This document shows positions 640 through 54,046 of a stretch of DNA of 54,046 nt, one piece after another (positions within the stretch are counted from its first letter, which is position 1; every line of letters begins with the position of its first letter). Position numbers and translations under genes: made by a program. The DNA is taken from positions 1 to 54,046 of IMG/VR virus record IMGVR_UViG_3300048597_000384; one strand, 5' to 3'. The notes beneath the pieces were generated by a model, which saw only the letters and a list, made by a program, of their open reading frames with translations, ran no database searches and was not told the DNA's origin. The DNA is from a virus.

Positions 640-727
640 TGGCGGATGGGGTGGGATTCGAACCCACGAGGGGTTGCCCCCTGGCGGTTTTCAAGACCGC
701 TGCCATCGACCGCTCGGCCACCCATCC
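640..727 (-). tRNA. tRNA-Ser(UGA), intact, with its 5' half supplied by the prophage
   Basis: On the minus strand the seven-base acceptor arms pair perfectly (GGATGGG at 727-721 with CCCATCC at 650-644). The anticodon UGA is at 693-691 in a CTTGAAA loop. There is a long class II variable arm, a GTTCGAATC T-loop, discriminator G at 643 and an encoded CCA at 642-640. Bases 685-727, from the anticodon stem to the 5' end, recur at 48385-48427, so this half belongs to the attachment core. The gene stays complete, but its upstream DNA is now phage DNA. A UGA anticodon reads UCA, with no other decoder visible in this window. Confidence 0.93.
685..727. repeat. attL: left copy of the 43-bp attachment core
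   Basis: This 43-bp stretch matches 48385-48427 with one difference (G at 712, A at 48412) and the similarity ends sharply on both sides. The copies are 47,700 bp apart and enclose an integrase and a complete phage gene set. The repeated part is the 5' half of tRNA-Ser, whereas most tRNA-targeting phages duplicate the 3' part. Confidence 0.85.
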
Positions 728-1054: not shown

Positions 1055-1735
1055 ATGTGGGAGCGCATCAAAAAGATTGCGGCCGAGTGGGGCTCAAACC
1101 TCACGTTCGGCGATTACCTTATCCGCCTCGGGAGCGCTGGATTGTCTCTTGGCGGGGGCGGCATAATGAGTTGGGCCGCCTCAGTCACAGGCTGGCTCCA
1201 AGAATGGGGGCCGATTGCAACGGTAGCGGCCGGTGTGCTTGGCTCTTGTTTGGTTGCTCTGTCTCTGGCCATCATCTACGCTCTAGTCAGTTTTGGCCGG
1301 ATGAAGCGCGCTCAAGCGTCATACCACGATTTATTGGCATCGACTGCCCATACGGTAAATCCACTTGCTCGGGGGTTCTCCACTATGAAGATCAGCTTGG
1401 CTGATCTTCAAATACATCACTCTGCAGTGGACTTCCCGCAGCAAGATAAGATCTTTTCTGACTGTGTAATTGTGGGGCCTGGAACAATGGCTTTTTCTAA
1501 TTGCACACTTACCAATATAAAGTTTCCTATGTCAAATATTGCCAAATTCAACGGCTTTGGCCTATTCTTCCCGAACGTTTTCTTTCATAGATGTACCTTT
1601 GTGAATTGCACATTTCTCCACCTGACTCTGTTTATTCGTACGCAAGACGCGGAAAATTTCAGCATGGAATTTCCTGGGCTAAAGTTCACCGAGGAAGCGC
1701 AGCCTATCGAATTACCGGCGGAGGTGAGTAGGTAA
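1055..1735 (+). CDS. membrane protein of unknown function, accessory gene by attL
   Basis: This 226-residue protein belongs to no family I recognise. Two hydrophobic segments (about residues 26-48 and 53-80) suggest a membrane anchor. After about residue 110 come short units with regularly spaced F and C residues (FSDC, FSNC, FHRC, VNC) that look like a small beta-solenoid of the pentapeptide-repeat type. From about 1310 on, the DNA is clearly more AT-rich than its neighbours, a sign of separate acquisition. It stands alone between attL and the integrase on the opposite strand to the integrase, a usual place for lysogenic-conversion genes. ATG 1055 has only a weak ribosome binding site. A role in superinfection exclusion or cell-surface change is possible but unproven. 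Confidence 0.7.
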   Translation: MWERIKKIAAEWGSNLTFGDYLIRLGSAGLSLGGGGIMSWAASVTGWLQEWGPIATVAAGVLGSCLVALSLAIIYALVSFGRMKRAQASYHDLLASTAHTVNPLARGFSTMKISLADLQIHHSAVDFPQQDKIFSDCVIVGPGTMAFSNCTLTNIKFPMSNIAKFNGFGLFFPNVFFHRCTFVNCTFLHLTLFIRTQDAENFSMEFPGLKFTEEAQPIELPAEVSR

Positions 1736-1868: not shown

Positions 1869-2873
1869 TCACGCCCCGGCCGCCAGGCGCTTGGCCGTGA
1901 CGGCTTCCTCGGGCGTGAGGAAGTCGAGGTAGAGCTCGGTGGTGGCGATGGTGCTGTGGCCCAGGATCTGCTGCAAGGCGTAGATCGAGCCGCCATCGCG
2001 CAAGTAGCGGACCGCGAACAGGTGGCGCAGGTCGTGGGTGCGGAAGGGCACGCCGGCGGCCTTCCTGAGCTGGTGCAGGTAGCTGGCGAGGTTGTGGTAG
2101 CGGTCCGCACCGCCGTCGCGGGTCGGGTGCCAGAAGACCCAGGCGCAGCCCAGCCTGCGGGGTGTGCCGTGAAGTGTGCCGGCGGCCGCCGGCGAGAGCG
2201 GCACGGAACGGGCCCGGCCGGTCTTGCTGCGCTCGACCTGCAGGGCAGCACGGTGCAGGTCGACCTGGCGCCAGCTGAGGCTTGCCGCCTCCTCGAGGCG
2301 CAGGCCGGTCTGCTCGAGCAGGCGCACCAGCGGGCGCAGGCGGGCGGGCAGGGAGCGGTGCAGCTGCTCGACCTGGTTGTCGGTGGGCAGCACGATCGGG
2401 TCGCGGCGCTCGCGGATCAGGCCGCGATCAAAGGCGCGCGCCGGGTTGGCCTGGAGCCACTCCCAGCCGACGGCCGCCTGCAGCACGGCCGAGACGGCGG
2501 TGAGGTCGCGGCGGCGGGTGGCGTTGGTGATACCGGGCCGGCCGGCGATGCGCGCCAGCACCTTGCGGTCGATCTCGTCCAGGTGCAGCGGGGCCAGGAC
2601 GTCGCCGGCGACCTTCAGGCTCGACAGGTAGCGGCGCAGCGTGGCCGGGCGCAGGGCAGCCAAGGCGACCTCGGCATGCCAGCGGACCACGGCTTCCTTC
2701 CAGGTCCGGCGCTCGTCGCCCCAGTCCGCCCTCTGCAGCCGCTCGAGCTCTGCCTTGGCCCGCTCGGCCGCTAGCTTGCGAACAGGCGTGCGTAGGCTGC
2801 GTCGATGCTCGCGACCGGCAATGGTGACGCGCAGCCACCAGACCTTGCCGCGCCGGTAGAGATGTTGCGGCAC
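1869..2873 (-). CDS. int: tyrosine recombinase integrase
   Basis: This 334-residue integrase carries out site-specific recombination between the phage and tRNA-Ser attachment sites. The N-terminus (about 1-50) is a basic arm-type domain, and 55-150 is the core-binding domain. The catalytic domain holds Arg192 (TGLRLEEAASL), the HDLRH motif (His280, Arg283), His306 (LGHS) and Tyr315 (TTELYLDF), so all key residues are present. Translation starts with GTG at 2873. The first 103 bases overlap the excisionase-like gene in another frame. It is the last gene of the leftward early operon and lies 1.1 kb from attL, as expected for the integrase that used this site. Confidence 0.93.
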   Translation of the reverse strand: MPQHLYRRGKVWWLRVTIAGREHRRSLRTPVRKLAAERAKAELERLQRADWGDERRTWKEAVVRWHAEVALAALRPATLRRYLSSLKVAGDVLAPLHLDEIDRKVLARIAGRPGITNATRRRDLTAVSAVLQAAVGWEWLQANPARAFDRGLIRERRDPIVLPTDNQVEQLHRSLPARLRPLVRLLEQTGLRLEEAASLSWRQVDLHRAALQVERSKTGRARSVPLSPAAAGTLHGTPRRLGCAWVFWHPTRDGGADRYHNLASYLHQLRKAAGVPFRTHDLRHLFAVRYLRDGGSIYALQQILGHSTIATTELYLDFLTPEEAVTAKRLAAGA

Positions 2874-6169: not shown

Positions 6170-6528
6170 GAGAAGAACTGCCACCAGGCGGCCGCGCCCA
6201 GGAGGCAGGCCAGGACCAGCCACAGCCCGCTGCCGGCGGCACGCTCGCCGGCGCCGAGCGGGCGGTCGCCGTCTTCCTCCTCGCCCTGGTCGTGCGGGCC
6301 GGCGTAGAGCCCGTGCACCGCGAGGTTCATGACCGCGTCGTCGACGGCGGCCTGGGCGGTGGCGTGGCTGCCGCTGTCGAGCAGCGGGCCGCTGCGGCCG
6401 TGGATGGCGGCGACGTAGCCGGCGCCGGGCCGGTACTCCAGCGACCAGGCCGTGTCGCCCGGCAGCTCGGCGAGCTCGACCCGGTTGCCCGGGCCGGGCC
6501 TCGCCTTGTGGATGTGCGTAACGCTCAT
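6166..6528 (-). CDS. hypothetical early protein with a C-terminal membrane anchor
   Basis: 120 residues. The soluble N-terminal part (about 1-85) has repeated hydrophobic-turn patterns. An acidic EEEDGD patch follows, then a single hydrophobic helix (about residues 100-117) ending in W-W-Q-F-F-S, which suggests a tail-anchored membrane protein. Its start region (VTHIHK and the ribosome binding site) is a near copy of the start region of the preceding gene. The start overlaps the upstream stop (ATGA). Function unknown. Confidence 0.55.
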   Translation of the reverse strand: MSVTHIHKARPGPGNRVELAELPGDTAWSLEYRPGAGYVAAIHGRSGPLLDSGSHATAQAAVDDAVMNLAVHGLYAGPHDQGEEEDGDRPLGAGERAAGSGLWLVLACLLGAAAWWQFFS

Positions 6529-6851
6529 TTCGCGCCCCGCTGGCTGGCAGGGTGAGGTTGGCAATAGATCACCGCGCCGCCCTTGGTGATCACCAGCTCT
6601 TCCCAGTCGGTTTCGAAGCTGTAGGTTTCCGTGAGGTCGCGGAAGCGCACCCGGATCGAGTCCGGCTCGTCCACGAACACCTTTCGACCGTTGAAGCCGC
6701 GCAGAGGCCTCTGCAGGCTGGCGGCATCGACCCGCCCCGGTCCGGGCAATACGGCGACGGCCGTCATCGCGAGCCCTTGCAGGACCAGCCGGCGGCGCGG
6801 CCCCACGGCCTTCGCCGCGGCACTCACCTTGTCGATGTGGGTAACGTCCAT
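6525..6851 (-). CDS. first gene of the leftward operon, possible Tat-exported protein
   Basis: 108 residues. After a short polar N-terminus (VTHIDK) comes an arginine cluster and hydrophobic segment (PRRRLVLQGLAM at about 18-29, then AVAVLPGPG), which resembles a twin-arginine signal peptide. The mature part is small and charged and contains a VRFRDLTETYSF strand pattern. ATG 6851 follows a GGGGGCG ribosome binding site and lies about 24 bases from the predicted start of the leftward promoter. Family unknown; export by Tat is inferred from the motif only. Confidence 0.5.
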   Translation of the reverse strand: MDVTHIDKVSAAAKAVGPRRRLVLQGLAMTAVAVLPGPGRVDAASLQRPLRGFNGRKVFVDEPDSIRVRFRDLTETYSFETDWEELVITKGGAVIYCQPHPASQRGAK

Positions 6852-6881
6852 TTCGCCCCCGTCGGTTGGTGACGGGAACGC

Positions 6882-6909
6882 AGGCTACCTCATTTCAGTG
6901 AGGCGTCAA
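6882..6909 (-). promoter_or_regulatory. leftward early promoter with operator in its spacer
   Basis: On the minus strand TTGACG (6909-6904) and TAGCCT (6887-6882) are 16 bases apart, and the 16-bp operator palindrome 6888-6903 fills the spacer exactly. Repressor bound there would block RNA polymerase directly. It drives the operon 6851 to 1869. Confidence 0.65.
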
Positions 6910-6932
6910 GCAGCAACCGCATTTTTATGAGG
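6888..6932. promoter_or_regulatory. left operators: two 16-bp palindromes
   Basis: CCTCATTTCAGTGAGG at 6888-6903 and CCGCATTTTTATGAGG at 6917-6932. Both have half-sites CC(T/G)CA and TGAGG separated by six bases, as do the three sites at 7819-7895. The second overlaps the 3' end of the rex-position gene. Confidence 0.7.
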
Positions 6933-7410
6933 CACTCGGTGCGGCGGTGTTCTCGCTTGCTTGGGCGATAGCCTCATCGACGGTTAAACCGTTCCGGTAG
7001 TGTAGACCACCATCGACCCAGGGAATGAAGCGCAGGAGATCCTTAAAGCCGTAGCGTCGGCCGCGAAGATAAGCTCGAACCGCAGAATTGAGGGTTCTGT
7101 GTTCAGAGAACACATATGGGTTGCCGGCCTCACGAGAAAAGCGAACGATAGCCCATCCCAGTCGATATGCTGAGCGACTGGATAAATCGTGACCTGTGTA
7201 AGTGTTGATGGCAGCGCAAGAGACCCAAATGCCATGCTTCGGGTCTCTTGCAGCAAGATAGGTTATCTGAACCTTAGGCCACTCTTGCCCGAAGGATGCC
7301 AAAATCTGTGTCCGAGCTAAGCTCTCATTCTCGGCGCAGATTTCCCCAGTACTGCTTGGGCGATCGCGGATCTTTCCTTCGCCACTGTCAACGACGAACA
7401 GGAAGTCCAT
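6925..7410 (-). CDS. rex-position lysogenic gene of unknown function
   Basis: 161 residues, no recognised family. It starts with a MDFLFVVDSGEG strand, has a central region rich in aromatic residues (ITYLAARDPKHGIWVSC), and ends in a helical tail; no signal peptide or membrane helix is visible. It lies 17 bases downstream of the repressor on the same strand, between the left and right operators. Lambda rexA/rexB occupy this place and are expressed with the repressor in lysogens. The DNA is more AT-rich than its neighbours, as in many recently gained phage cargo genes. A role in excluding other phages is a strong candidate but is inferred from position. Confidence 0.65.
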   Translation of the reverse strand: MDFLFVVDSGEGKIRDRPSSTGEICAENESLARTQILASFGQEWPKVQITYLAARDPKHGIWVSCAAINTYTGHDLSSRSAYRLGWAIVRFSREAGNPYVFSEHRTLNSAVRAYLRGRRYGFKDLLRFIPWVDGGLHYRNGLTVDEAIAQASENTAAPSAS

Positions 7411-7427
7411 GCGATCGCCTCGGCATT

Positions 7428-7817
7428 CTATCGAGTAATCGCTCTATGTCTCGGCGCAGTCAGTGCTTGCAGTAGCTCATTGTTCTGCTGCAGTAGCGCG
7501 CGTTGGTCATTCATCAACGCGCGGATGTCCTGTAGAACGGAAAGAACTATCTGCAGGTCATTGCTCGCGCGGGGCGTCGCATTGTCGCCGGTACCGGGGG
7601 ACCTTTCGTCTCCATCCTGGAGAAGCTCGGGGATGGAAATGCCTTCCGCGTCCGCCAGCTTTTCTAGGGTGCGGGCCGTGATCGAGCGGTTGGGTTCGTT
7701 GAGGAAGGTCGCAAGGGTGTTCTCGGACAAGCCAGCACGGGCCGCCCATGGATACGGCTTCAGGTCCTTGCGCTTCATGTAGGCCCTGAGCCGGGTGCGA
7801 ATGAACTCCGGTGTCAT
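7428..7817 (-). CDS. immunity repressor (XRE/CI-like, no peptidase domain)
   Basis: 129 residues. The N-terminal domain (about 5-62) is a Cro/CI helix-turn-helix with PWAARAGLSENTLATFLN as the HTH. The C-terminal half (about 85-120) is a glutamine- and leucine-rich coiled coil, probably the dimerisation part. The S24 autoprotease domain of lambda-type repressors is missing, so induction by RecA-driven self-cleavage is not expected. ATG 7817 is two bases from the operator at 7819-7834, which covers the region where its ribosome binding site should be, pointing to autoregulation. It shares the site set with the Cro-like gene at 7908. Confidence 0.8.
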   Translation of the reverse strand: MTPEFIRTRLRAYMKRKDLKPYPWAARAGLSENTLATFLNEPNRSITARTLEKLADAEGISIPELLQDGDERSPGTGDNATPRASNDLQIVLSVLQDIRALMNDQRALLQQNNELLQALTAPRHRAITR

Positions 7818-7818
7818 G

Positions 7819-7895
7819 CCGCATTTTTGTGAGCTGGCATCGATGCCAGCAACCTCATCGTTGTGAGCCCCATTGCAAACCTCAAAAGAATGAGG
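7819..7895. promoter_or_regulatory. right operators: three 16-bp palindromes
   Basis: CCGCATTTTTGTGAGC (7819-7834), CCTCATCGTTGTGAGC (7853-7868) and CCTCAAAAGAATGAGG (7880-7895) share CC(T/G)CA-N6-TGAG(G/C) with the left operators. Three sites between the divergent repressor and Cro-like genes repeat the layout of lambda OR1-OR3. Confidence 0.75.
7833..7850. promoter_or_regulatory. 18-bp perfect palindrome between two operators
   Basis: GCTGGCATCGATGCCAGC is its own reverse complement and does not match the operator consensus. It lies between the operators at 7819 and 7853, so a second regulator may bind here. Confidence 0.5.
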
Positions 7896-7901
7896 TAAGC
7901 G
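7873..7901 (+). promoter_or_regulatory. rightward early promoter with operator in its spacer
   Basis: TTGCAA (7873-7878) and TAAGCG (7896-7901) are 17 bases apart, and the operator 7880-7895 fills the spacer. Transcription would begin close to the ATG at 7908, leaving almost no leader. Confidence 0.55.
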
Positions 7902-7907
7902 GGCTCG

Positions 7908-8141
7908 ATGAGCGTGAACGCCACCCTCCAGCACATCCGTGGGCGCCTGCTGAGCAGCGGCCTGCCGCTCCGGCGCGTCGCACAGGAAGCCGAACTGGCC
8001 GAGAACACCGTGGCGAAGGTTGCCAGGGCCAGCCCCAGGGTCACCGTCGACACGCTGCGCCGTATCGAGCGCGTTCTGGATCGTCTCGCATCCGAGCCCG
8101 CTGAGAGCGCCCCCAGCGCGAGCAGCGACAGTGTCCAATAG
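7908..8141 (+). CDS. Cro-like helix-turn-helix regulator
   Basis: 77 residues, with the HTH at about 19-52 (RRVAQEAELAENTVAKVARA) and a serine-rich tail. It is transcribed rightward, divergently from the repressor, as the first gene after the right operators, which is the Cro position. No clear ribosome binding site precedes ATG 7908, and the -10 box ends only six bases upstream, so the message may be leaderless. It probably binds the same operators to favour lytic growth; this is inferred from position and fold. Confidence 0.8.
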   Translation: MSVNATLQHIRGRLLSSGLPLRRVAQEAELAENTVAKVARASPRVTVDTLRRIERVLDRLASEPAESAPSASSDSVQ

Positions 8142-11264: not shown

Positions 11265-11437
11265 GTGCGGCCGTGCTGGTGATCCTGGCCTGCCTGGGCG
11301 GCGGCACTTGCCAGCGGTTCGAGGTGCCGGTCGAGGCCTGCACCGCCGGCGGCCAGCCGGCCGTCCTGGCCTGGCGGATGCTCCATCCCGATTGGACCGT
11401 GCGCCGCTGGCGCTGCGAACAGGGAACCCCCGCATGA
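11261..11437 (+). CDS. small secreted or membrane protein before the lysozyme, 58 residues
   Basis: A GTG start at 11261 overlaps the corrected upstream stop (GTGA). The N-terminus is a short hydrophobic helix (AAVLVILACLGG) with a cysteine that could anchor a lipoprotein, followed by a small domain with three more cysteines and tryptophans. Its stop overlaps the lysozyme start (ATGA). It might be a lysis accessory factor, but the evidence is positional. Confidence 0.45.
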   Translation: MSAAVLVILACLGGGTCQRFEVPVEACTAGGQPAVLAWRMLHPDWTVRRWRCEQGTPA

Positions 11438-12261
11438 TCGAGAACCGCGAGGCGTGGATGGATCTGCTGTTCTCGGACGAGGTCGAGGGCGGCTGGTCCG
11501 ACCGCCCGAAGAACGAAGACCCCGGCGGCAAGACGATGCGGGGCATCACGCTCGGCTGCTACTCGGATTTCCTGGGGCGGGCGGCGACGCCGGAAGAGCT
11601 GCGCCAGATCACCGAGGAGAAGGCCCGGGAGATCGCGATCACGATGTTCTGGAACCCGGTCAGCGGCGACTTCCTGCCCGGCGGCGTGGACGTGCTCGCG
11701 GCCGACTTCGCCTTCCACAGCCATTGGACCAGGGCGGCGAAGGAGCTGCAGGAGCTGGTCGGCGTCAAGGTCGACGGCTTCGTCGGCCCGAACACGATCT
11801 CGGCCGTGCGGCGGCACAACCAGCGCGACCTGGTGCTGCGCTACTACGACGCCCGCATGGACTTCATGGAGGGCCTGCCGAACTGGGAGGCCAACGCGCG
11901 GGGCTGGCGCAAGCGGGCCAAGCTGATGCGCGACCTGGCCCTCAAGAAGGTCCAGGCGCGCCCGACGCTGGTGGCGGCGCTGAAGAACCCCGAGGCGGTC
12001 GGCACGGCCACGGCCGCGGCCGCGGGTGCCACCGGCATCGCCTGGTACCTGGACCAGGCCGGCCCCCTGATCGAGGCCATCAAGGGCCTGCTCGGGCCGG
12101 AGCAGCTGCAGAAGCTGCAGTCGATCGACGACACGGTGGCGGCCGCCGGCGCCGGCGACCCGCTGCCGGCCTTGCTCCTGGTCGCCTACATGACCGCCAC
12201 CAGCGGGTTCGCGGTCTACCGGATCATCCAGACCTTCCGGAAGGGCCGGGTGATCGCATGA
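11434..12261 (+). CDS. GH108-type endolysin (lysozyme) with a C-terminal membrane segment
   Basis: 275 residues. The N-terminal domain carries the glycoside hydrolase 108 signature: E-G-G-W around the catalytic Glu18, then DPGGKTMRGIT (29-39). A peptidoglycan-binding-like segment follows near 110-126 (VKVDGFVGPNTIS). The last 40 residues include a hydrophobic helix (LPALLLVAYMTATSGFAVY), unusual for a simple cytoplasmic endolysin. It cleaves the glycan backbone of peptidoglycan at lysis, and without a signal peptide it would need a holin. It is followed by spanin-like genes, and the lysis cassette lies unusually early, before the replication genes. Confidence 0.88.
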   Translation: MIENREAWMDLLFSDEVEGGWSDRPKNEDPGGKTMRGITLGCYSDFLGRAATPEELRQITEEKAREIAITMFWNPVSGDFLPGGVDVLAADFAFHSHWTRAAKELQELVGVKVDGFVGPNTISAVRRHNQRDLVLRYYDARMDFMEGLPNWEANARGWRKRAKLMRDLALKKVQARPTLVAALKNPEAVGTATAAAAGATGIAWYLDQAGPLIEAIKGLLGPEQLQKLQSIDDTVAAAGAGDPLPALLLVAYMTATSGFAVYRIIQTFRKGRVIA

Positions 12262-40821: not shown

Positions 40822-41853
40822 ATGCCGACTTTCCCAGCCACCGGCGCCTTCGCGGCCAGGTCGGGGAGCAACGCCAGTCGCGGCCCCGAGTTCGAGAAGT
40901 GGCTGGGGGCCACCAAGAACCTGGTTGGCGGCGAGGGCTCCTCGGTGGTGAGTATCCTCGGCGGTGCGATCACGCCCTTGACCTGGCGCGTGGCGGTCGA
41001 CGTGGAAGGCGGTGCGGCGGCCTCGGACGATCTGGACCGGGTCAATGCCGGCAGCGAGTACCACAGCGGTGCCGTGATCGTGCTCTCGGCCGCGGCCGAC
41101 ACCCGCACGATCAACGTGCGCAACCTCACCGGCAACATCGTGCTGAAGTCGAGCAGCTTCCAGCTGAAGGGTGCCTGGGCCCGGCTGTGGCTGGAGCTGC
41201 AGGGCACCAACTGGGTCGAGCTCGCCCGCGACTACGGGCAGGACCGGGCGCAGGAGCGGGCCTTCCTGGGCGTGGACGGTGCGGCGCCGGTCGCGGGCCA
41301 GCCGGCGACCTACAGCCATGCCACCGGTGCCGAGGCCCTCGCCGGCGCCAGCCAGACCGCCGTGATGACGCCCCTGACGAACACGGTGGCGATGCAGTCC
41401 GCGGCGCTGATGATCATGCAGCACGCGGATGCCACTGGCCTCACCGCGGCGGACGAGTTCCTGCTCGCCCGCGGCGGCGTGCTCTACCGGATCAACATCG
41501 TCGAGCTGCTGGCCCCGAGCTTCGCCAACTTCGCCACAACCGGCGAGATCGCCATCACCTCGGCCAACAACGGCTTCGCCGCCCACGGCATGGGCGCGCA
41601 GCCGACCCTCTTGCGGGCCTACTACCGCTGCAAGACGGCCGAGCATGGCTATGCGGTCGGGATGGAGGTCCCGGTCGAGTGCACCAGTCCCGAGGAGACC
41701 TATCGCCGGGTCACCTTCGGGGCAGACGGCACGAACTACTATTTCCAGATGTCCGCCACCACCAACGGGGTGCGCGGCATCCACCGCACCAGCGGTGCCG
41801 CGGTGAACTTCACCAACGCCAACTGGCGCCTGTTCATCCGGATGTGGCGCTGA
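40822..41853 (+). CDS. tail fibre protein 2
   Basis: 343 residues. A beta-rich protein with a SNASRGPEFEKWL start, a trimer-type middle (NLTGNIVLKSSSFQL) and a YYFQMSATTNGVRGIHRT segment near the C-terminus. It begins three bases after the previous stop and so belongs to the same fibre cluster. Function as a receptor-binding or fibre accessory protein is inferred. Confidence 0.65.
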   Translation: MPTFPATGAFAARSGSNASRGPEFEKWLGATKNLVGGEGSSVVSILGGAITPLTWRVAVDVEGGAAASDDLDRVNAGSEYHSGAVIVLSAAADTRTINVRNLTGNIVLKSSSFQLKGAWARLWLELQGTNWVELARDYGQDRAQERAFLGVDGAAPVAGQPATYSHATGAEALAGASQTAVMTPLTNTVAMQSAALMIMQHADATGLTAADEFLLARGGVLYRINIVELLAPSFANFATTGEIAITSANNGFAAHGMGAQPTLLRAYYRCKTAEHGYAVGMEVPVECTSPEETYRRVTFGADGTNYYFQMSATTNGVRGIHRTSGAAVNFTNANWRLFIRMWR

Positions 41854-47483: not shown

Positions 47484-48260
47484 ATGCCTGCAATGCTCAG
47501 GATCCTGCTGCTGCTGCTCGCGGCCATGGTCTTCGCCAATGCGGCCCAAGCCGCGAACGTGACCCTCCTCTTCGTCTACAGCCCGGGCGCTCGCGACAAG
47601 ATGAACGCCTATGCCGGCAGCGTCTCGCAGTGGACGAAGCTGGCGCTCGAGCAGCTGAACCGGGCGCACTCGATCAGCAACACCGGCCAGACCGTCTCGC
47701 TCTCGCAGAACGCCGCCGGCACTTGGTCGAGGAAGCTGCTCACCAACTACGTCAAGGCGCCGGCCGGCGCTCCGCAAGGTGACAGCCTCGGTAATGATCT
47801 CGTGCGTCTCCAGGCCGATGGCGACGGCTACATGGACAAGGTCCACGAGTGGCGCGACGAATACGCTGCCGACGTGGTGATCGGCGTCTTCGACTACAGC
47901 CCCGGCGAGTTCAACACCGGGCAGGCCTGGGTCCAGGGTACGGACTTCGCCGACGAGGCCTTCCTGGTGGTCGACGTCGACCGGGCGATCGCCATCGGCG
48001 ATCTGATCCTCGGGCACGAGATGGGGCACCTGTACGGCTGCGCGCACGAGAGCGCCGCGATCAGCTCGCGTGGCTATTGCGAGCCGGGCAACCAGTGGCA
48101 CGATCTTATGGCGATCAGCTGCCCGAACGTGTTCTCGACCCGGCTGAACTTCTGGTCGGCCAACATCTCGATCGTCGGCCGGGGGATGATCGGCGACTTC
48201 ACACACAACTGTGCGGCCGCGATCCCCTACTTCTCCAACCGCATGAGCACGTTCCGCTAG
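47484..48260 (+). CDS. secreted metzincin-type zinc metalloprotease
   Basis: 258 residues with an N-terminal signal peptide (cleavage expected after AQA, residue 23). The zinc site is HEMGHLYGCAH at 178-188, the HExxHxxGxxH pattern of metzincins, with His178, Glu179, His182 and His188. A methionine that could be the Met-turn is at 209. Two cysteine pairs suggest disulphides. It is the last gene before attR, separate from the late operon, with GGAAG upstream of ATG 47484. Lysogenic-conversion cargo acting outside the cell is likely; the substrate is unknown. Confidence 0.8.
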   Translation: MPAMLRILLLLLAAMVFANAAQAANVTLLFVYSPGARDKMNAYAGSVSQWTKLALEQLNRAHSISNTGQTVSLSQNAAGTWSRKLLTNYVKAPAGAPQGDSLGNDLVRLQADGDGYMDKVHEWRDEYAADVVIGVFDYSPGEFNTGQAWVQGTDFADEAFLVVDVDRAIAIGDLILGHEMGHLYGCAHESAAISSRGYCEPGNQWHDLMAISCPNVFSTRLNFWSANISIVGRGMIGDFTHNCAAAIPYFSNRMSTFR

Positions 48261-48270
48261 CCCTGCCGGG

Positions 48271-48278
48271 CTGTGCCG
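48271..48278 (+). promoter_or_regulatory. fourth CTGTGCCG copy near attR
   Basis: Identical to the three copies beside attL and located 107 bases inside attR. It may be an integrase arm site. Confidence 0.35.
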
Positions 48279-48384
48279 CCGGCCGCTCCGCTGCCGGCGT
48301 CGCTCCGTTCGCCTGATGCGTTAGACGCGCTGCCGGAAAGTCAGGGATCGCCTGGGTTTCGGGCTTCCGGCCGCGATCTCTGCC

Positions 48385-48427
48385 CGGTTTTCAAGACCGC
48401 TGCCATCGACCACTCGGCCACCCATCC
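48385..48427. repeat. attR: right copy of the 43-bp attachment core (orphan tRNA-Ser 5' half)
   Basis: The copy contains only the 5' half of tRNA-Ser and cannot make a tRNA. The single difference from attL is in the D-arm (GAGTGG here, GAGCGG in the intact gene). Confidence 0.85.
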
Positions 48428-48441
48428 GTCCCGGCCGACCT

Positions 48442-48469
48442 GAGATAGCATGGCTGCATCTCTCCGCAA
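48442..48469 (-). promoter_or_regulatory. likely original promoter of tRNA-Ser, now disconnected
   Basis: On the minus strand TTGCGG (48469-48464) and TATCTC (48447-48442) are 16 bases apart, and the box ends 14 bases before the orphan half gene. It would now transcribe only the tRNA fragment and prophage DNA. Confidence 0.4.
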
Positions 48470-48491
48470 GCCGGGCAGGTCGGCGCTGATG

Positions 48492-48680
48492 CCGGACGGA
48501 CCTGTCCGCCTTGCGGAGCCGGAGCATCAGACAGCGGAACTCTACGTCGATGGTGGTAGCCTTAAGCAAGTGGTGCGATGCTCGGGATCGCGCCGTCGAC
48601 TGTGCGGACCCGCCTGAGCGCGATCTGCCGCAAGCCCAGGGTGACGGCCCGGATCGGGCTGCGCCCAGCGCGCCGTCCTT
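48492..48680 (+). pseudogene. broken LuxR-type regulator (HTH fragment)
   Basis: One frame gives RLAEPEHQTAELYVDGGSLKQV, which matches the start of a LuxR C-terminal HTH. A one-base shift is needed before MLGIAPSTVRTRLSAICRK, its recognition helix. The N-terminal receiver or sensor domain is missing. The fragment lies between attR and the second phage element, so it is probably host DNA. Confidence 0.55.
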
Positions 48681-48698
48681 ACCTCGACTCCCTCCCGC

Positions 48699-50258
48699 TC
48701 AGGGCTGGAAGCCTGTCTGGGCGCGCCACTGGCCTGTATGGCGCCAGTCCCATCGTGGCAGGGCGGGGGGGCTCGGTCCGAGGCGGACTGGCTGCGCCAG
48801 GATACTGCCGCTGACGGCGTCCAGGCCGTCGTCGCGGCCGCGGCCGCCTGGCAGCCATTCGCGCATCTCGCGGATGAACGGCGTTTCCCAGACCGAGGCG
48901 TGGGCGCGCAGGGCACGGGCGGCAAGGATCGGGTCGAACGCGTTCAGGATGCGCGTGTCCTTGGCCGTGACGCTCACCTGCTCGCTGACCGTGATCGCGA
49001 GGTGCCGGGCCGCGAGTTCGCGGCGCAGCAGTGTCGGCAGGTAGCGGCCCAGGCCGTTGGTCTCGATCGCGATCGCCGGCTGGTGCTGCGCGCGCAGGAA
49101 GGCGATCACCTGCCGGCACAGCTGGGCGGCCTCGTCCTCGACGGCAAGACCGCTCTCGTCGACGCGCAGGTACTGGATGCCGTGGAGCCAGTAGCCCCCG
49201 CTGTCGTCGGTGAACACGGCGGCGACCACGCTGGCGTCGCCCCGGGTCGGCCGGGCCATCGCTGGATCCCACCAGCACGTAGCCCCGACCATCCGCCGCC
49301 CCTCGATAGTGAGGATCGGCTCGCCATTGACCTCGCGCAGGTCGAGCCGGCCCTCGTAGCGCACCAGCCGGTCCGGATCGAGGCGGACGTCCTGGGTGTG
49401 GCCGGGCGTCAGCATCATCTGGCTGCGGAAGCGGTTGGGGCCGGTGTCGCGCTGGATGTCGGCCACCGCCTCGCCGCCGAAGCGGTCCGGCCAGACACCG
49501 TCCAGCGCCTTGTCGACCAGCGGAATGTTCATCCTGGTGTAGCTGGCGAGGAAGGGCACCGCCTCGTCGAGCTCGGGCCGGGGCTCGTCGGCGTAGATCG
49601 AGTAGTAGCTGTGCGGCGTGCCGATGTAGAGCTGGGTGCCGTCGGGCACCAGGACGAACGAGGCCTCGCGCAGGCGTTCGCGCAGCTCCATGCGCTTGTG
49701 GTGGGTGCCGGCGGTGTTGGGCACCTCGACATCGTCGCAGATGATGATGTCGGCGCGGCAGCCGGTGATGTTCGCACCGATGCCACGGGCCATGAGCGAG
49801 GGGTCGCGATGCGCGGCCTCGCGCGCGACGGTGAACTGTGCCGCCGCCCACTCCTCACGCCGCCTGGGCAGAAGATGTCGGGTCAGCTTGTTGCGCTCCA
49901 GCACCCGGCGGACATTGCGGGTCATGCGCGTGGCGAGGCCGGCCTCGGCCGACAGGACGAGCAGGCGCAGGTTCGGGTCCTGGCCCAGGAGCCAGGCACA
50001 GAACAGGCCGACCAGCGTGGACTTGCCCGCGTCGCGGAACACCATCAGCAGGAGCCGTCGGTCGCCGGCGGCCCAGCGCTCGTCGAGCCAGCGCGACATG
50101 CGCAAGTGCACGTCGGGGGTCTCGCGGCCCTGCTGCAGGTTCCAGGCGGTGACGAAGCTGGAAAAGGGCAGCCCGGCCAGAGGCCCGCGACAGGGTCGGG
50201 CCGGTGCTGCGGACGATGCCCGCGCGCCGGCCTCAAGACTGCCTTCGTCAGCGTTCAA
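48699..50258 (-). CDS. terL: terminase large subunit of the second element
   Basis: 519 residues. The P-loop is VFRDAGKST at 73-81, Walker B is DIIICDDVE at 170-178, and the C-terminal nuclease domain has IAIETNGLGRYLP and a GRDDGLDAVSG aspartate motif. It belongs to the T7 gp19/phage terminase class, not to the gpA class of prophage 1. It is the last gene in its direction, as gp19 is in T7. The start overlaps the preceding gene (ATGA). Confidence 0.88.
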   Translation of the reverse strand: MNADEGSLEAGARASSAAPARPCRGPLAGLPFSSFVTAWNLQQGRETPDVHLRMSRWLDERWAAGDRRLLLMVFRDAGKSTLVGLFCAWLLGQDPNLRLLVLSAEAGLATRMTRNVRRVLERNKLTRHLLPRRREEWAAAQFTVAREAAHRDPSLMARGIGANITGCRADIIICDDVEVPNTAGTHHKRMELRERLREASFVLVPDGTQLYIGTPHSYYSIYADEPRPELDEAVPFLASYTRMNIPLVDKALDGVWPDRFGGEAVADIQRDTGPNRFRSQMMLTPGHTQDVRLDPDRLVRYEGRLDLREVNGEPILTIEGRRMVGATCWWDPAMARPTRGDASVVAAVFTDDSGGYWLHGIQYLRVDESGLAVEDEAAQLCRQVIAFLRAQHQPAIAIETNGLGRYLPTLLRRELAARHLAITVSEQVSVTAKDTRILNAFDPILAARALRAHASVWETPFIREMREWLPGGRGRDDGLDAVSGSILAQPVRLGPSPPALPRWDWRHTGQWRAQTGFQP

Positions 50259-50692
50259 TCGAGCAGGCTCCGCCCCGACCGCGACGAGCCTGCGAACCGG
50301 CTGCCGAGCCTCACGGAGCGGCCGGCGAAGTCGAGCAGGCTGCGCTGACTGCGGTTGTCGAAGGTGTTGCGGATGTCCTCGATCTCGAGGTTCGATTCTT
50401 GCCGGCGCGCCTGCTCGCGCAGGCGGCTCTCCTGCACCAGCCCGGCCAGGATCGCGTCGGCCGAGCCGCCGCTGGAGCCCACGCCGGCCCCGCCCGCGCG
50501 GGCGCGCTCCTCCGCCAGGCGGCGGCGCAATGCCTGCTCCTGCTGCCGCCCCTCCTCGGCGTCACCGATCCTGATCGCCTGGATCTGGCGGTCGCGCTCG
50601 CGGCGCAGATCCTTGGCCTCGTTGGCCTGCGCGCGCTGGTTCAGGGCCAGATTGAGGCCCAACGTGGCCAGGCTGTTCAACGCACCCATCAC
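50255..50692 (-). CDS. internal virion-type protein, 145 residues
   Basis: A charged, strongly helical protein: hydrophobic N-terminus (LNSLATLGLNLALN), long Arg/Glu-rich helix (RERDRQIQAIRIGDAEEGRQ) and a glycine-rich hinge. Its position after the tail tube B protein and before terminase is where short T7-like internal (ejection) proteins are found. Function by position only. Confidence 0.55.
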   Translation of the reverse strand: MMGALNSLATLGLNLALNQRAQANEAKDLRRERDRQIQAIRIGDAEEGRQQEQALRRRLAEERARAGGAGVGSSGGSADAILAGLVQESRLREQARRQESNLEIEDIRNTFDNRSQRSLLDFAGRSVRLGSRFAGSSRSGRSLLD

Positions 50693-52611
50693 ATGTTCCC
50701 CATGATCTCGGAGGTGACCGAAAGGATGGTGCAGGCGGCCGGGTCGTCCTGGCGGACGCGCCAGGGCGGCTCGGCACTGCCGCGGCGCCAGCCGGAGGCC
50801 CGCAGCTCGGCCTCGCCGGAGTACCGCCTGGCGGCATCGCCTGCACCCAGCGGCAGGGCGTGGAGGCCGCTGCCGGCATCGGCCCGCAGGGCGCCGGTCT
50901 CGTGCAGGCGGAAGACGATCCGGACCGGCCGGTAGGGTCGATCCAGGCTCACGCCCGAACCGCCCGGGACCGCGAGGCTCATCGGCTCGACCTCGTGCGC
51001 GAAGGGCGCGCCGATGGTGACGGACGTGGCGGTGGCGAGAGCGGTCACGGCACCGGCTGCCACCACGGCGCGATGCGCCGGGCCCGGACCCTCCAGAATG
51101 ACCTCGCGCCCTTCCAGATGCTGCAGCCCGCCCCAGGCGATCGTCGGCGTGGGACTGGCGAGCGTCACCGTATGGTCGGTCGTCAGCGCTTCCTCGAAGC
51201 GCTCCAGCAGGATCTGCCCGCCGAGGTCGACCAGGAAATGCGGCTGGCCGTCGTGGATGGCGACCGACCGGAACAGACCGGTGCTCTCGAGCAGGCTCCA
51301 GGCCACGACGTTGCTGTTGCGGTCGAGCGCCACCGTCGCGAGCGTGCCGTCCGCCCGCACGAGCAGGAGCCAGCGCCGCCGCCGGTCGAAGCGCAGGGCC
51401 GTGGGCTCTACCATGAGGTGGCGCGACAGCAGCGCGATGTCAGCCGCCTGGTAGGCCTGTTCGCTCTCGGCGTAGAGGAACTCGCGCAGCTCGCGGCCCG
51501 AGGCGCCCACGAACAGGGCGGCACCGTCGACCTCCACCGGGTCGAGCCGCCGCGTCGCCCAGGAGCCTATCCGGGTCTGCAGCTCGACCGACACGCTTTC
51601 CGCGGTGATCGGCGCGCCGCGCACCACCCACTCGCCGCTGGTGGTGAACACCTGCAGGAGCCTGCCCGGCAGGAGGCCGCGGATCGCGTGCTGCTCGTCG
51701 CCGGCAAGGCGGAAGCTGATCGCCTCGTCGGGAAGTCCTTCGCCGGGGTCGAAGTTGAACGGGTGGCCGGTCCTGGAGAACCACAGGCGGTCCGGTACGT
51801 CGCGCGAGCCGCCGATCACCAGCCGCTCCTGGTGGACCGCGACGCAGGCGGGCCAGCCGCGCGCTTCGCTGAACGCCTGCTCCTGCCAGTCGCGGGTGGG
51901 CTTGCCGTCCTTCAGCTTCTGCAGGGCCACGCCGAACGCGCGCTGCCGGTCGACCGGGTCGGGATTGACGATCCGGATGTGCTTGCCCTTGACCGTGATC
52001 ACCGAGTCGATGTGGTCGGGCGTGAACACGGGCTCGCTGGTCAGCAGCGAGACGAAGCTGCCGGCGGCGATCTCGCCGGCAGCACCGTCGTTCACCTGGA
52101 TCGCGATCTCCGGCCGGACGAAGCGGGCGAACGGGAACAGGCTGCGGGCCTCGCCGTCCTCGTCCAAGGACTGCTCGTACTGCCAGTCCCGCAGCAGCCA
52201 GCCGGACACGCCGTCGCGGATAAGCTCCTTGGGCGGTACCGCCGGATGGCATAGCAGGAGGCGGTCGCCCCAGCGCGCGATGCTCAGGTCCGGCAACTCG
52301 GCCGGTCCCCAGAGGGTGTCGGTGACGGCGTGGACCACGACTCCGCCGCGCAGGATGTCGAGCCGGTAGGAACCAAAGGCCAGGAGCTCGCCGCCCCCCG
52401 AGCCCTCGAAGGTGGCGAGGCGCAGCGCCCCGGGTAGCGACGCGACCAAGCGCAGGCCGGGCCGGCGGCTCACGCCTCCGGAGGGATGAACGACTACGTT
52501 GCGAAGCCTGGCCGCGCCGTCCTCCTGGGCCTTGAGGTCGAGCCGGCCGCGCAGCAGCGGATCGAGCTCGCCCGATGTGAAGCTGGTCTTGGTGACGAAG
52601 GCGCGGGTCAT
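50689..52611 (-). CDS. tail tubular protein B-like (T7 gp12 type)
   Basis: 640 residues. The start (FTSGELDPLLRGRLDLKAQED) and a NVVVHPSGGVSRRPGLRLVA motif are typical of this protein in T7-like prophages. The rest is beta-propeller-like with an EYARSEQAYQAADIALLSRH-like segment near 375. It forms the nozzle of the short tail. The gene overlaps both neighbours (ATGA with the upstream gene, three codons at its 3' end). Confidence 0.85.
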   Translation of the reverse strand: MTRAFVTKTSFTSGELDPLLRGRLDLKAQEDGAARLRNVVVHPSGGVSRRPGLRLVASLPGALRLATFEGSGGGELLAFGSYRLDILRGGVVVHAVTDTLWGPAELPDLSIARWGDRLLLCHPAVPPKELIRDGVSGWLLRDWQYEQSLDEDGEARSLFPFARFVRPEIAIQVNDGAAGEIAAGSFVSLLTSEPVFTPDHIDSVITVKGKHIRIVNPDPVDRQRAFGVALQKLKDGKPTRDWQEQAFSEARGWPACVAVHQERLVIGGSRDVPDRLWFSRTGHPFNFDPGEGLPDEAISFRLAGDEQHAIRGLLPGRLLQVFTTSGEWVVRGAPITAESVSVELQTRIGSWATRRLDPVEVDGAALFVGASGRELREFLYAESEQAYQAADIALLSRHLMVEPTALRFDRRRRWLLLVRADGTLATVALDRNSNVVAWSLLESTGLFRSVAIHDGQPHFLVDLGGQILLERFEEALTTDHTVTLASPTPTIAWGGLQHLEGREVILEGPGPAHRAVVAAGAVTALATATSVTIGAPFAHEVEPMSLAVPGGSGVSLDRPYRPVRIVFRLHETGALRADAGSGLHALPLGAGDAARRYSGEAELRASGWRRGSAEPPWRVRQDDPAACTILSVTSEIMGNM

Positions 52612-53180
52612 GCCAGGCGCGCCTCGATGAGCGTGAAATCGTCAAAGGCGCGCGGCGTGGTCTGCTGGCTGTCGATCAGCCGGGCGCCGCGCAGCTCGGC
52701 TTCGGCCAGGCGGTAGAGGTCCATGGCCCGGCTCGAGCCCTCGGTTAGTGGGATGCAGAACTCCGCGGCGAGGCGGGTAACCAGCAGCGGCACGAAGAAG
52801 GGTGGCAGATCGGCCTCGGGCACGCGCCGCTGGTAGTTCAGCACGATCTCCTGGGCGTCGCAGAGGATCTGGCCGGCCTGCACCCGGTAGGCGGTGCCGC
52901 GGCTGCGGCCGCCCGTGCCCACCGAGATGGTGCGCAAATGGTCCTCGGGCAGCGCGAAGGCGTGGACGAAGTCGGCCACCGGTGCGGCCGCATCGGGCGC
53001 CAGCGTCACCTGGGCCAGCGTGAACGACCAGGGATGCACGCCCAAGAGCAGGTCACGCGCGATCGGGTAGAGCCGGCGGGCGCAGGCGGCCTCCGCCGTG
53101 TCCTCCTCGAACGCGGCGAAGGGGCGAGCGCCGATCTTCACCAGGGCCGCGGCGCAGAGCTCGACGGCGGACATCGGCAT
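52608..53180 (-). CDS. tail tubular protein A-like (T7 gp11 type)
   Basis: 190 residues, near the 196 of T7 gp11. Helical start with SAVELCAAALVKIGARPFAA, ARDLLLGVHPWSFTLAQV and the AAEFCIPLTEGSSRAMDLY part are diagnostic of the tail-adaptor fold. It joins portal and nozzle. The stop overlaps the gp12-like start (ATGA). Confidence 0.85.
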   Translation of the reverse strand: MPMSAVELCAAALVKIGARPFAAFEEDTAEAACARRLYPIARDLLLGVHPWSFTLAQVTLAPDAAAPVADFVHAFALPEDHLRTISVGTGGRSRGTAYRVQAGQILCDAQEIVLNYQRRVPEADLPPFFVPLLVTRLAAEFCIPLTEGSSRAMDLYRLAEAELRGARLIDSQQTTPRAFDDFTLIEARLA

Positions 53181-53213
53181 GATCGTACTCCGGGCAGGCA
53201 GCTGGGTTCGGGA

Positions 53214-53576
53214 TCAGGCGACCTGGCCGACATGCTGGCGCAGCGTGCGCCAGAGGTCGGCCGGGCGCGTCGGCAGGAGGGCCAGGAGGCAGCCGGCCTG
53301 GCCGAAGGCGATCAGGATCGGCCGGCCGGGCTGGACGAACAGCGCGACGCCGTCGGGGGTGGAGGGCAGGGCCTCACCGCCGCGCTCGCCCCACAGCGAG
53401 AGGAACGGGATGAGCTCGCCCGCGGCATAGTCGAAGCGATGGGTCTCCGGCAGGCGCGCCGCGAGTTGGGCGACGCTCAGGCCCGGACAGCCGATCGCGG
53501 GGGTGGCGGTGAGGCTGGTGGCGAGGAACAGGCCGCGCACCAGGGCGCGGCGCCAGATGCGCATCCGGACCGGCAT
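53214..53576 (-). CDS. secreted or periplasmic protein of unknown function
   Basis: 120 residues with a signal peptide-like N-terminus (RALVRGLFLATSLTATPAIG) then a beta-rich domain. It is unusual between capsid and tail genes, and could be a lysis or exclusion factor. No family is recognised. Confidence 0.5.
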   Translation of the reverse strand: MPVRMRIWRRALVRGLFLATSLTATPAIGCPGLSVAQLAARLPETHRFDYAAGELIPFLSLWGERGGEALPSTPDGVALFVQPGRPILIAFGQAGCLLALLPTRPADLWRTLRQHVGQVA

Positions 53577-53635
53577 CGCTATCGCTCCAGGAGAAGGTGC
53601 CGCCGCCGGGCGACAGGCCCGGCGGCGGCGAGAGG

Positions 53636-53905
53636 TCAGTCGTTGTTGACCGCGCCGTAGGTGGTCACGTTGGTCACATCGACCACGCCGCCTGCATTGG
53701 CGACCACGACCGCCACGCCGTGGGTCGGCGTGCTGTCGATACCGGCATTGAGCAGCACGAAGTCCCCGACCCGGACCATCCGGCTCGCCGGGTTGAAGTA
53801 CCCGGCATTGTCGACCTGGGCAGCGAGGTCGGTGGTCCGGTAGTGCCAGAGGGTAAAGCCGTTGGCGTAGCCCAGGGCACTCAGGTTCTTGGGATCGTAC
53901 GCCAT
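53636..53905 (-). CDS. phage head-associated small protein
   Basis: 89 residues. The start (MAYDPKNLSALGYANGFTLW) is one I know from T7-like prophages of alphaproteobacteria, where the gene follows the capsid gene. The protein is a small beta-barrel, perhaps a decoration or stabilising protein. It starts three bases after the capsid-like stop. Confidence 0.65.
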   Translation of the reverse strand: MAYDPKNLSALGYANGFTLWHYRTTDLAAQVDNAGYFNPASRMVRVGDFVLLNAGIDSTPTHGVAVVVANAGGVVDVTNVTTYGAVNND

Positions 53906-53907
53906 GA

Positions 53908-54046
53908 TCAGGCCTCCAGGCAGGGCAGCTTGACGACGCCGGCGGGGTCGATCAGCCCGGCGCCCTGGGACATCGAGTTGGCGACGAAGTGTGCCGCGCG
54001 GTCGCCGTGCCAGGTCACGTCGCTGGTGATCTCCTGGCCGATCGCG
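53908..54046 (-). CDS. major capsid-like protein, C-terminus only (partial)
   Basis: The last 45 codons of a gene that continues beyond the right edge. It contains TSDVTWHGDRAAHFVANSMS, an ending I associate with capsid proteins of this phage group, and stops at TGA 53910-53908. Its position upstream of the head-associated and gp11-like genes agrees. Partial sequence limits confidence. Confidence 0.5.
   Translation of the reverse strand, partial: AIGQEITSDVTWHGDRAAHFVANSMSQGAGLIDPAGVVKLPCLEA

What the first reader, a model, noticed from the sequence alone, without database searches (positions are those of the whole stretch)
6925..7410. Unknown gene in the rex position
It lies directly behind the repressor and between the two operator groups, is AT-richer than its surroundings and has no known family. 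In lambda this place holds the rexAB exclusion genes, and in many phages other anti-phage cargo.
Basis: partly seen in the sequence, partly recalled or inferred. Interest (0 to 1): 0.7.

Follow-up and report, generated by a model that had tools for sequence, protein, structure and literature searches.

The report
Orphan prophage gene beside repressor
A dormant virus in a bacterial chromosome carries, directly behind its master repressor gene, a foreign-looking gene with no known relative; this is the spot where other phages keep genes that stay on in the host and often block rival viruses, but what this one does is still untested.

Summary
A real-looking 161-aa gene (6925-7410, minus strand) starts 17 nt behind a 129-aa phage repressor and has its own Shine-Dalgarno sequence. 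It lies between two groups of operators, five 16-bp palindromes that occur nowhere else in the window. It is much AT-richer than the rest of the prophage (GC3 0.54 against 0.90 +/- 0.05). The prophage has both ends, attL and attR, in a tRNA-Ser gene. The protein has no relative in Pfam, NCBIfam, PHROGs, PADLOC, PDB, INPHARED or PLSDB by sequence search, nor in IMG/VR or GTDB by a close-relative search. It is neither RexA nor RexB. A relative phage (integrase 89% identical) has the same anatomy but an unrelated small membrane or lipoprotein in this slot, so the slot behaves as an exchangeable cargo position, like rex in lambdoid phages. Best reading: an acquired accessory gene expressed with the repressor in the lysogen, more likely excluding other phages than anything else; that function is inferred from position only. 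The repressor lacks a self-cleavage domain, so a role in the switch remains a rival. The structure model failed (pLDDT 40). New member of a known kind; modest interest.

The parts
6925..7410 (-). orphan accessory gene in the rex position, 161 aa, soluble, pI about 8.6, no HExxH motif
   Evidence: no family
7418..7421 (-). Shine-Dalgarno-like GAGG, 7 nt before the ATG
   Evidence: read directly
7428..7817 (-). phage repressor, 129 aa: Cro/C1-type HTH plus a leucine-rich, probably coiled-coil C-terminus; no S24 self-cleavage domain matched
   Evidence: HTH_26 E 1.6e-8; repressor PHROGs; coil inferred from the sequence
6888..6903 (.). operator OL-a; on the minus strand it fills the spacer between TTGACG and TAGCCT, a PL-like promoter
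   Evidence: promoter reading by eye
6917..6932 (.). operator OL-b; overlaps the stop codon of the orphan gene
7819..7834 (.). operator OR, 1 bp upstream of the repressor start codon
7853..7868 (.). operator OR, middle
7880..7895 (.). operator OR next to the cro-like gene, within a weak PR-like promoter
   Evidence: promoter reading by eye
7908..8141 (+). cro-like small HTH gene, 77 aa, divergent from the repressor
   Evidence: phrog_37057 E 2e-4; aligns with the relative's cro-like protein
6525..6851 (-). first gene of the leftward (PL) operon, 108 aa, no family
1869..2873 (-). tyrosine integrase of the prophage
   Evidence: phrog_1 E 4e-52
685..727 (.). attL, inside tRNA-Ser(tga) 640-727
48385..48427 (.). 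attR; 42 of 43 nt identical to attL

Best explanation
The ORF is a horizontally acquired accessory (moron) gene parked in the rex position of a lambda-like prophage. In the lysogen it is transcribed with the repressor from the leftward repressor promoter in OR and translated from its own Shine-Dalgarno sequence, while the operators keep PL and PR shut. The product is a soluble 18-kDa cytoplasmic protein that benefits the lysogen. The single most likely benefit is exclusion of superinfecting phages by a one-gene system acting inside the cell. Shown: position, operator layout, coding signal, foreign composition, and a different occupant of the slot in a relative phage. Inferred: co-transcription, expression in the lysogen, and the anti-phage role.
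For: Same strand as the repressor, 17-nt gap, good SD, no terminator predicted between them on that strand. Five operators bracket repressor and gene as OL and OR do in lambda. GC3 is about 7.6 SD below the mean of the other prophage genes. In the relative G003 (integrase 89% identical, same attachment site with joined attP) the layout is repeated with other operators, a 128-aa repressor and a cro-like gene, but the slot holds an unrelated 85-aa protein. A homologue of that 85-aa protein (41%, 2e-8 in the collection search) lies in a P2-like phage close behind a TIR-domain gene, a domain common in phage defence. The literature names this slot a mosaic hot spot and a common site of lysogenically expressed genes: rexAB in lambda, bstA in BTP1, and a RexAB-type system behind a CI-like repressor in P. 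putida (PMC8585504, PMC7067206, PMC12894663).
Against: No match to any defence family or to RexA or RexB. No homologue at all, so no selection or context test of function was possible. No transcript data. Structure model of no use (pLDDT 40). Other host-fitness functions would look the same.
Confidence: 0.5

Rival explanations
1. It is part of the switch: a protein made with the repressor that binds it, tunes it or inactivates it on an inducing signal, as ImmA does for ImmR or antirepressors do for small non-cleavable repressors.
For: The repressor is short (129 aa) and matches only HTH families apart from weak coil-like hits, with no S24 peptidase. Gifsy repressors of about 136 aa that lack the cleavage motif need a separate antirepressor (PMC3121763). 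The gene sizes and order (about 129 and 161 aa) resemble immR-immA (own knowledge).
Against: No HExxH motif and no Pfam peptidase match, so not an ImmA-type protease. The relative G003 has an equally short repressor but an unrelated gene in the slot, which a needed partner would not predict. The known Gifsy antirepressors lie outside the immunity region under LexA (PMC3121763). The composition is foreign even compared with the repressor (GC3 0.54 against 0.71).
Confidence: 0.17
2. It is a lysogenic-conversion gene with a host-fitness role unrelated to phages (stress, metabolism, regulation).
For: Slot and composition fit any moron; the prophage carries other candidate cargo at both ends (1055-1735, and a reprolysin-like peptidase at 47484-48260).
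Against: No membrane span and no metabolic family; in the literature read here, the characterised occupants of this slot are anti-phage.
Confidence: 0.23
3. The ORF is a chance open frame in an AT-rich spacer between repressor and OL.
For: ORF length alone is not strong (59 of 2000 shuffles reach it) and the window's codon model scores it negatively. No homologue.
Against: RNY periodicity (1 of 20,000 shuffles), a good SD, ATG 17 nt after the repressor stop, and a protein of ordinary globular composition.
Confidence: 0.08

Closest known systems
rexAB of phage lambda
   Same: Position: behind the repressor, same strand, before OL, presumably on the repressor transcript.
   Different: One gene instead of two; no RexA or RexB match; no membrane span, so nothing like the RexB channel.
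bstA of Salmonella phage BTP1
   Same: Single gene behind the repressor; bstA is transcribed from the repressor promoter in lysogens (PMC7067206, PMC8585504).
   Different: No sequence match to any defence or phage family; bstA has an 88-bp gap to cI, here 17 nt; an aba-like self-immunity element could not be tested.
immR-immA of ICEBs1 and relatives
   Same: Short repressor followed by a gene of about 160-170 aa in one operon (own knowledge).
   Different: No HExxH metalloprotease motif and no Pfam peptidase match.
85-aa gene of relative phage G003 (L023 5379-5636)
   Same: Same slot in a phage with a closely related integrase and the same attachment site.
   Different: Unrelated sequence; one hydrophobic span or lipoprotein-like start; has distant relatives in a P2-like phage and Roseomonas plasmids.

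Membership tests
RexAB exclusion system | gene(s) directly behind the repressor, same strand, upstream of OL | tested here: met
RexAB exclusion system | RexA sequence family (PF15969) | tested here: not met
   no PDB RexA chain at E up to 10
RexAB exclusion system | RexB membrane protein (PF15968) as second gene | tested here: not met
   highest 19-residue hydropathy 0.47; no second gene before OL
RexAB exclusion system | exclusion of other phages by the lysogen | not testable with these tools
   needs plaque assays
Rex-position accessory gene of a lambda-like prophage (moron) | between repressor and OL of a temperate phage | tested here: met
Rex-position accessory gene of a lambda-like prophage (moron) | composition unlike the phage | tested here: met
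   GC3 0.543 against 0.899 +/- 0.047
Rex-position accessory gene of a lambda-like prophage (moron) | absent or replaced in related phages | tested here: met
   G003: different gene in the same slot; one relative only
Rex-position accessory gene of a lambda-like prophage (moron) | expressed in the lysogen | not testable with these tools
   needs RNA-seq
ImmA-type anti-repressor protease | HExxH zinc-binding motif / Peptidase_M78 | tested here: not met
Known anti-phage defence protein | match to a PADLOC model | tested here: not met
   no hit at E up to 10

The most novel reading that the evidence does not exclude
A one-gene, soluble phage-exclusion protein of a family not yet described, expressed with the repressor of a lambda-like prophage of a high-GC, probably alphaproteobacterial host, with a mechanism unlike RexAB or BstA.
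Probability: 0.4. Interest if true: 0.6.

Novelty: new member of a known kind. Interest (0 to 1): 0.38.

Why it matters
The slot behind the repressor has given RexAB and BstA. Here the same lambda-like anatomy is found in a phage far from the enteric ones, and two related phages fill the slot with unrelated genes. If the slot is a general cargo position, it is a sequence-independent way to find new lysogeny-expressed, possibly anti-phage, genes that family searches miss. The gene itself is one short, cloneable candidate.

Tried and rejected
Sequence relatives: Pfam, PHROGs, PADLOC, NCBIfam, PDB, INPHARED and PLSDB gave only chance-level hits (best PHROG E 0.05). Pattern scans of GTDB and of IMG/VR with the whole protein and with its C-terminal half found none; these scans reach close relatives only. 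Searching cellular genomes by kinship was not possible for a virus record. AlphaFold2 on the single sequence gave pLDDT 40, so no fold search was run: matches would be meaningless. A promoter-like match just upstream of the gene (7452-7425) was rejected: one found, 0.4 expected, and transcription from it would start at or inside the SD. A LexA-type box search gave one match in the cro-like gene with 0.73 expected: chance. The weak hits of the protein inside the terminase gene and in G009 are short and low-scoring, and were rejected. Repeats between the two ends of the ORF are short and were not pursued.

Full report
What is there. The window is a whole IMG/VR virus record of 54,046 bases, 71% GC. 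It holds a lambda-like prophage: integrase (1869-2873, minus), immunity region (6888-8141), endolysin (11308), sliding-clamp-like protein (12835), primase-helicase (14646), terminase, portal, head protease, capsid, tape measure and a lambda J-like fibre. A 43-nt repeat with one mismatch, at 685-727 inside a tRNA-Ser gene and at 48385-48427, marks attL and attR. A relative phage, G003, carries the two flanks side by side as attP (window 48270-48401 followed by 685-824, at L024 12695-12950), which confirms the ends. The nearest portal and clamp proteins are in alphaproteobacterial plasmids and phages among others, so an alphaproteobacterial host is likely but not shown.

The immunity region. The repressor (7428-7817, minus) is 129 aa: a Cro/C1-type HTH (HTH_26, E 1.6e-8) and a leucine-rich tail that looks like a coiled coil (inference). 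No self-cleaving peptidase domain is matched. A small cro-like HTH gene (7908-8141) diverges from it. Five 16-bp palindromes of the form CC(T/G)CA-n6-TGAG(G/C) lie at 6888, 6917, 7819, 7853 and 7880. The pattern search finds four where 0.04 are expected; a matrix built from the five scores them 16.3 to 19.9, and nothing else in the window exceeds 11.6. Two lie on the left and three on the right, as OL and OR in lambda. On the minus strand the site at 6888 fills the space between TTGACG and TAGCCT, so repressor there would block a leftward promoter (by eye). One operator ends 1 bp upstream of the repressor start codon and no SD is seen in front of that start, so the repressor message may be leaderless like that of lambda cI (inference).

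The gene in question. The ORF 6925-7410 (minus) starts 17 nt behind the repressor stop, has GAGG 7 nt before its ATG, and ends inside the operator at 6917-6932. It is coding by codon periodicity (64 RNY codons against 40.5 +/- 5.5 expected; 1 of 20,000 shuffles). Its GC3 of 0.543 compares with 0.899 +/- 0.047 for 49 called prophage genes and 0.71 for the repressor, so it is a foreign, probably recent, arrival (inference). The product is 161 aa, 17.9 kDa, pI 8.6, without a membrane span.

Relatives. None was found by sequence in Pfam, PHROGs, PADLOC, NCBIfam, PDB, phage and plasmid records, nor by pattern scans of IMG/VR and GTDB species genomes. Those scans detect close relatives only, and cellular genomes could not be searched by profile for this record. 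RexA and RexB models find nothing in the window or in G003. The single-sequence structure model has pLDDT 40 and cannot be used.

The slot in a relative. G003 (IMGVR_UViG_3300044825_002279, 64 kb) shares the integrase (89% aa), the attachment site, the endolysin (81%) and a gene like 40822-41853 (71%). Its immunity region (L023 5318-6282) has the same plan with other parts: GCTCAAAAAGTTGCGC-type operators on both sides, a 128-aa repressor with HTH, and a cro-like gene. The slot holds an 85-aa protein with one hydrophobic span or lipoprotein-like start, unrelated to ours. A relative of that small protein (41%, E 2e-8) stands in an accessory block of Escherichia phage P2_AC1 that also holds a TIR-domain gene, and others stand unannotated on Roseomonas plasmids. 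One relative is a small sample, but the finding is what an exchangeable cargo site predicts and not what a required partner of the repressor predicts.

What it most likely does. The region between repressor and N in lambdoid phages is a known hot spot of mosaicism holding rexAB and bstA, and bstA is transcribed from the repressor promoter in the lysogen (PMC8585504; PMC7067206). In P. putida a RexAB-type defence system lies behind a CI-like repressor with two genes between (PMC12894663). By anatomy this gene should be expressed with the repressor. I take exclusion of other phages as the most likely benefit (about 0.5), with another host-fitness role (0.23) and a role in the switch (0.17) as rivals. 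The last is kept because the repressor shows no self-cleavage domain and must be inactivated by something; small Gifsy repressors without the cleavage motif use separate antirepressors (PMC3121763). An ImmA-like protease is excluded by the lack of the HExxH motif.

Verdict. Observation confirmed; interpretation right about the place and unproven about the function. A new member of a known kind: a rex-position accessory gene whose protein family is unknown.

Noticed in passing
1055-1735 (+): A second very AT-rich orphan gene (226 aa, GC 0.50, GC3 0.55): likely membrane spans near the N-terminus and a weakly pentapeptide-like C-terminus, between attL and the integrase. Candidate accessory gene.
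   Followed up: partly
47484-48260 (+): Reprolysin-like metallopeptidase (Pfam Reprolysin_5, E 6e-10) just inside attR, a candidate lysogenic-conversion gene.
   Followed up: partly
48428-54046: Outside attR there is another phage-like gene block on the minus strand (a second large terminase, a tail protein). Its gene 53636-53905 is 57% identical to the first leftward gene of relative phage G003.
   Followed up: partly
6500-6537 and 6823-6860: A 38-nt direct repeat (84%) covers the start regions of two adjacent leftward genes, giving them similar first residues (MSVTHI / MDVTHI).
   Followed up: no
6850-6884 (-): A strong 10-bp hairpin lies between OL and the start codon of the first leftward gene, without a U-tract.
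   Followed up: no
11308-12261 (+): An endolysin (Glyco_hydro_108) lies in the early region before the replication genes, instead of with late genes.
   Followed up: no
L023 5379-5636 (-) and L025 2980-3168 (+): A small lipoprotein-like family (shared C-terminus around IGS-P-L-DGR-A---ERC-R---AF), mostly unannotated, occurs in the rex slot of G003 and in an accessory block with a TIR-domain gene in phage P2_AC1.
   Followed up: partly
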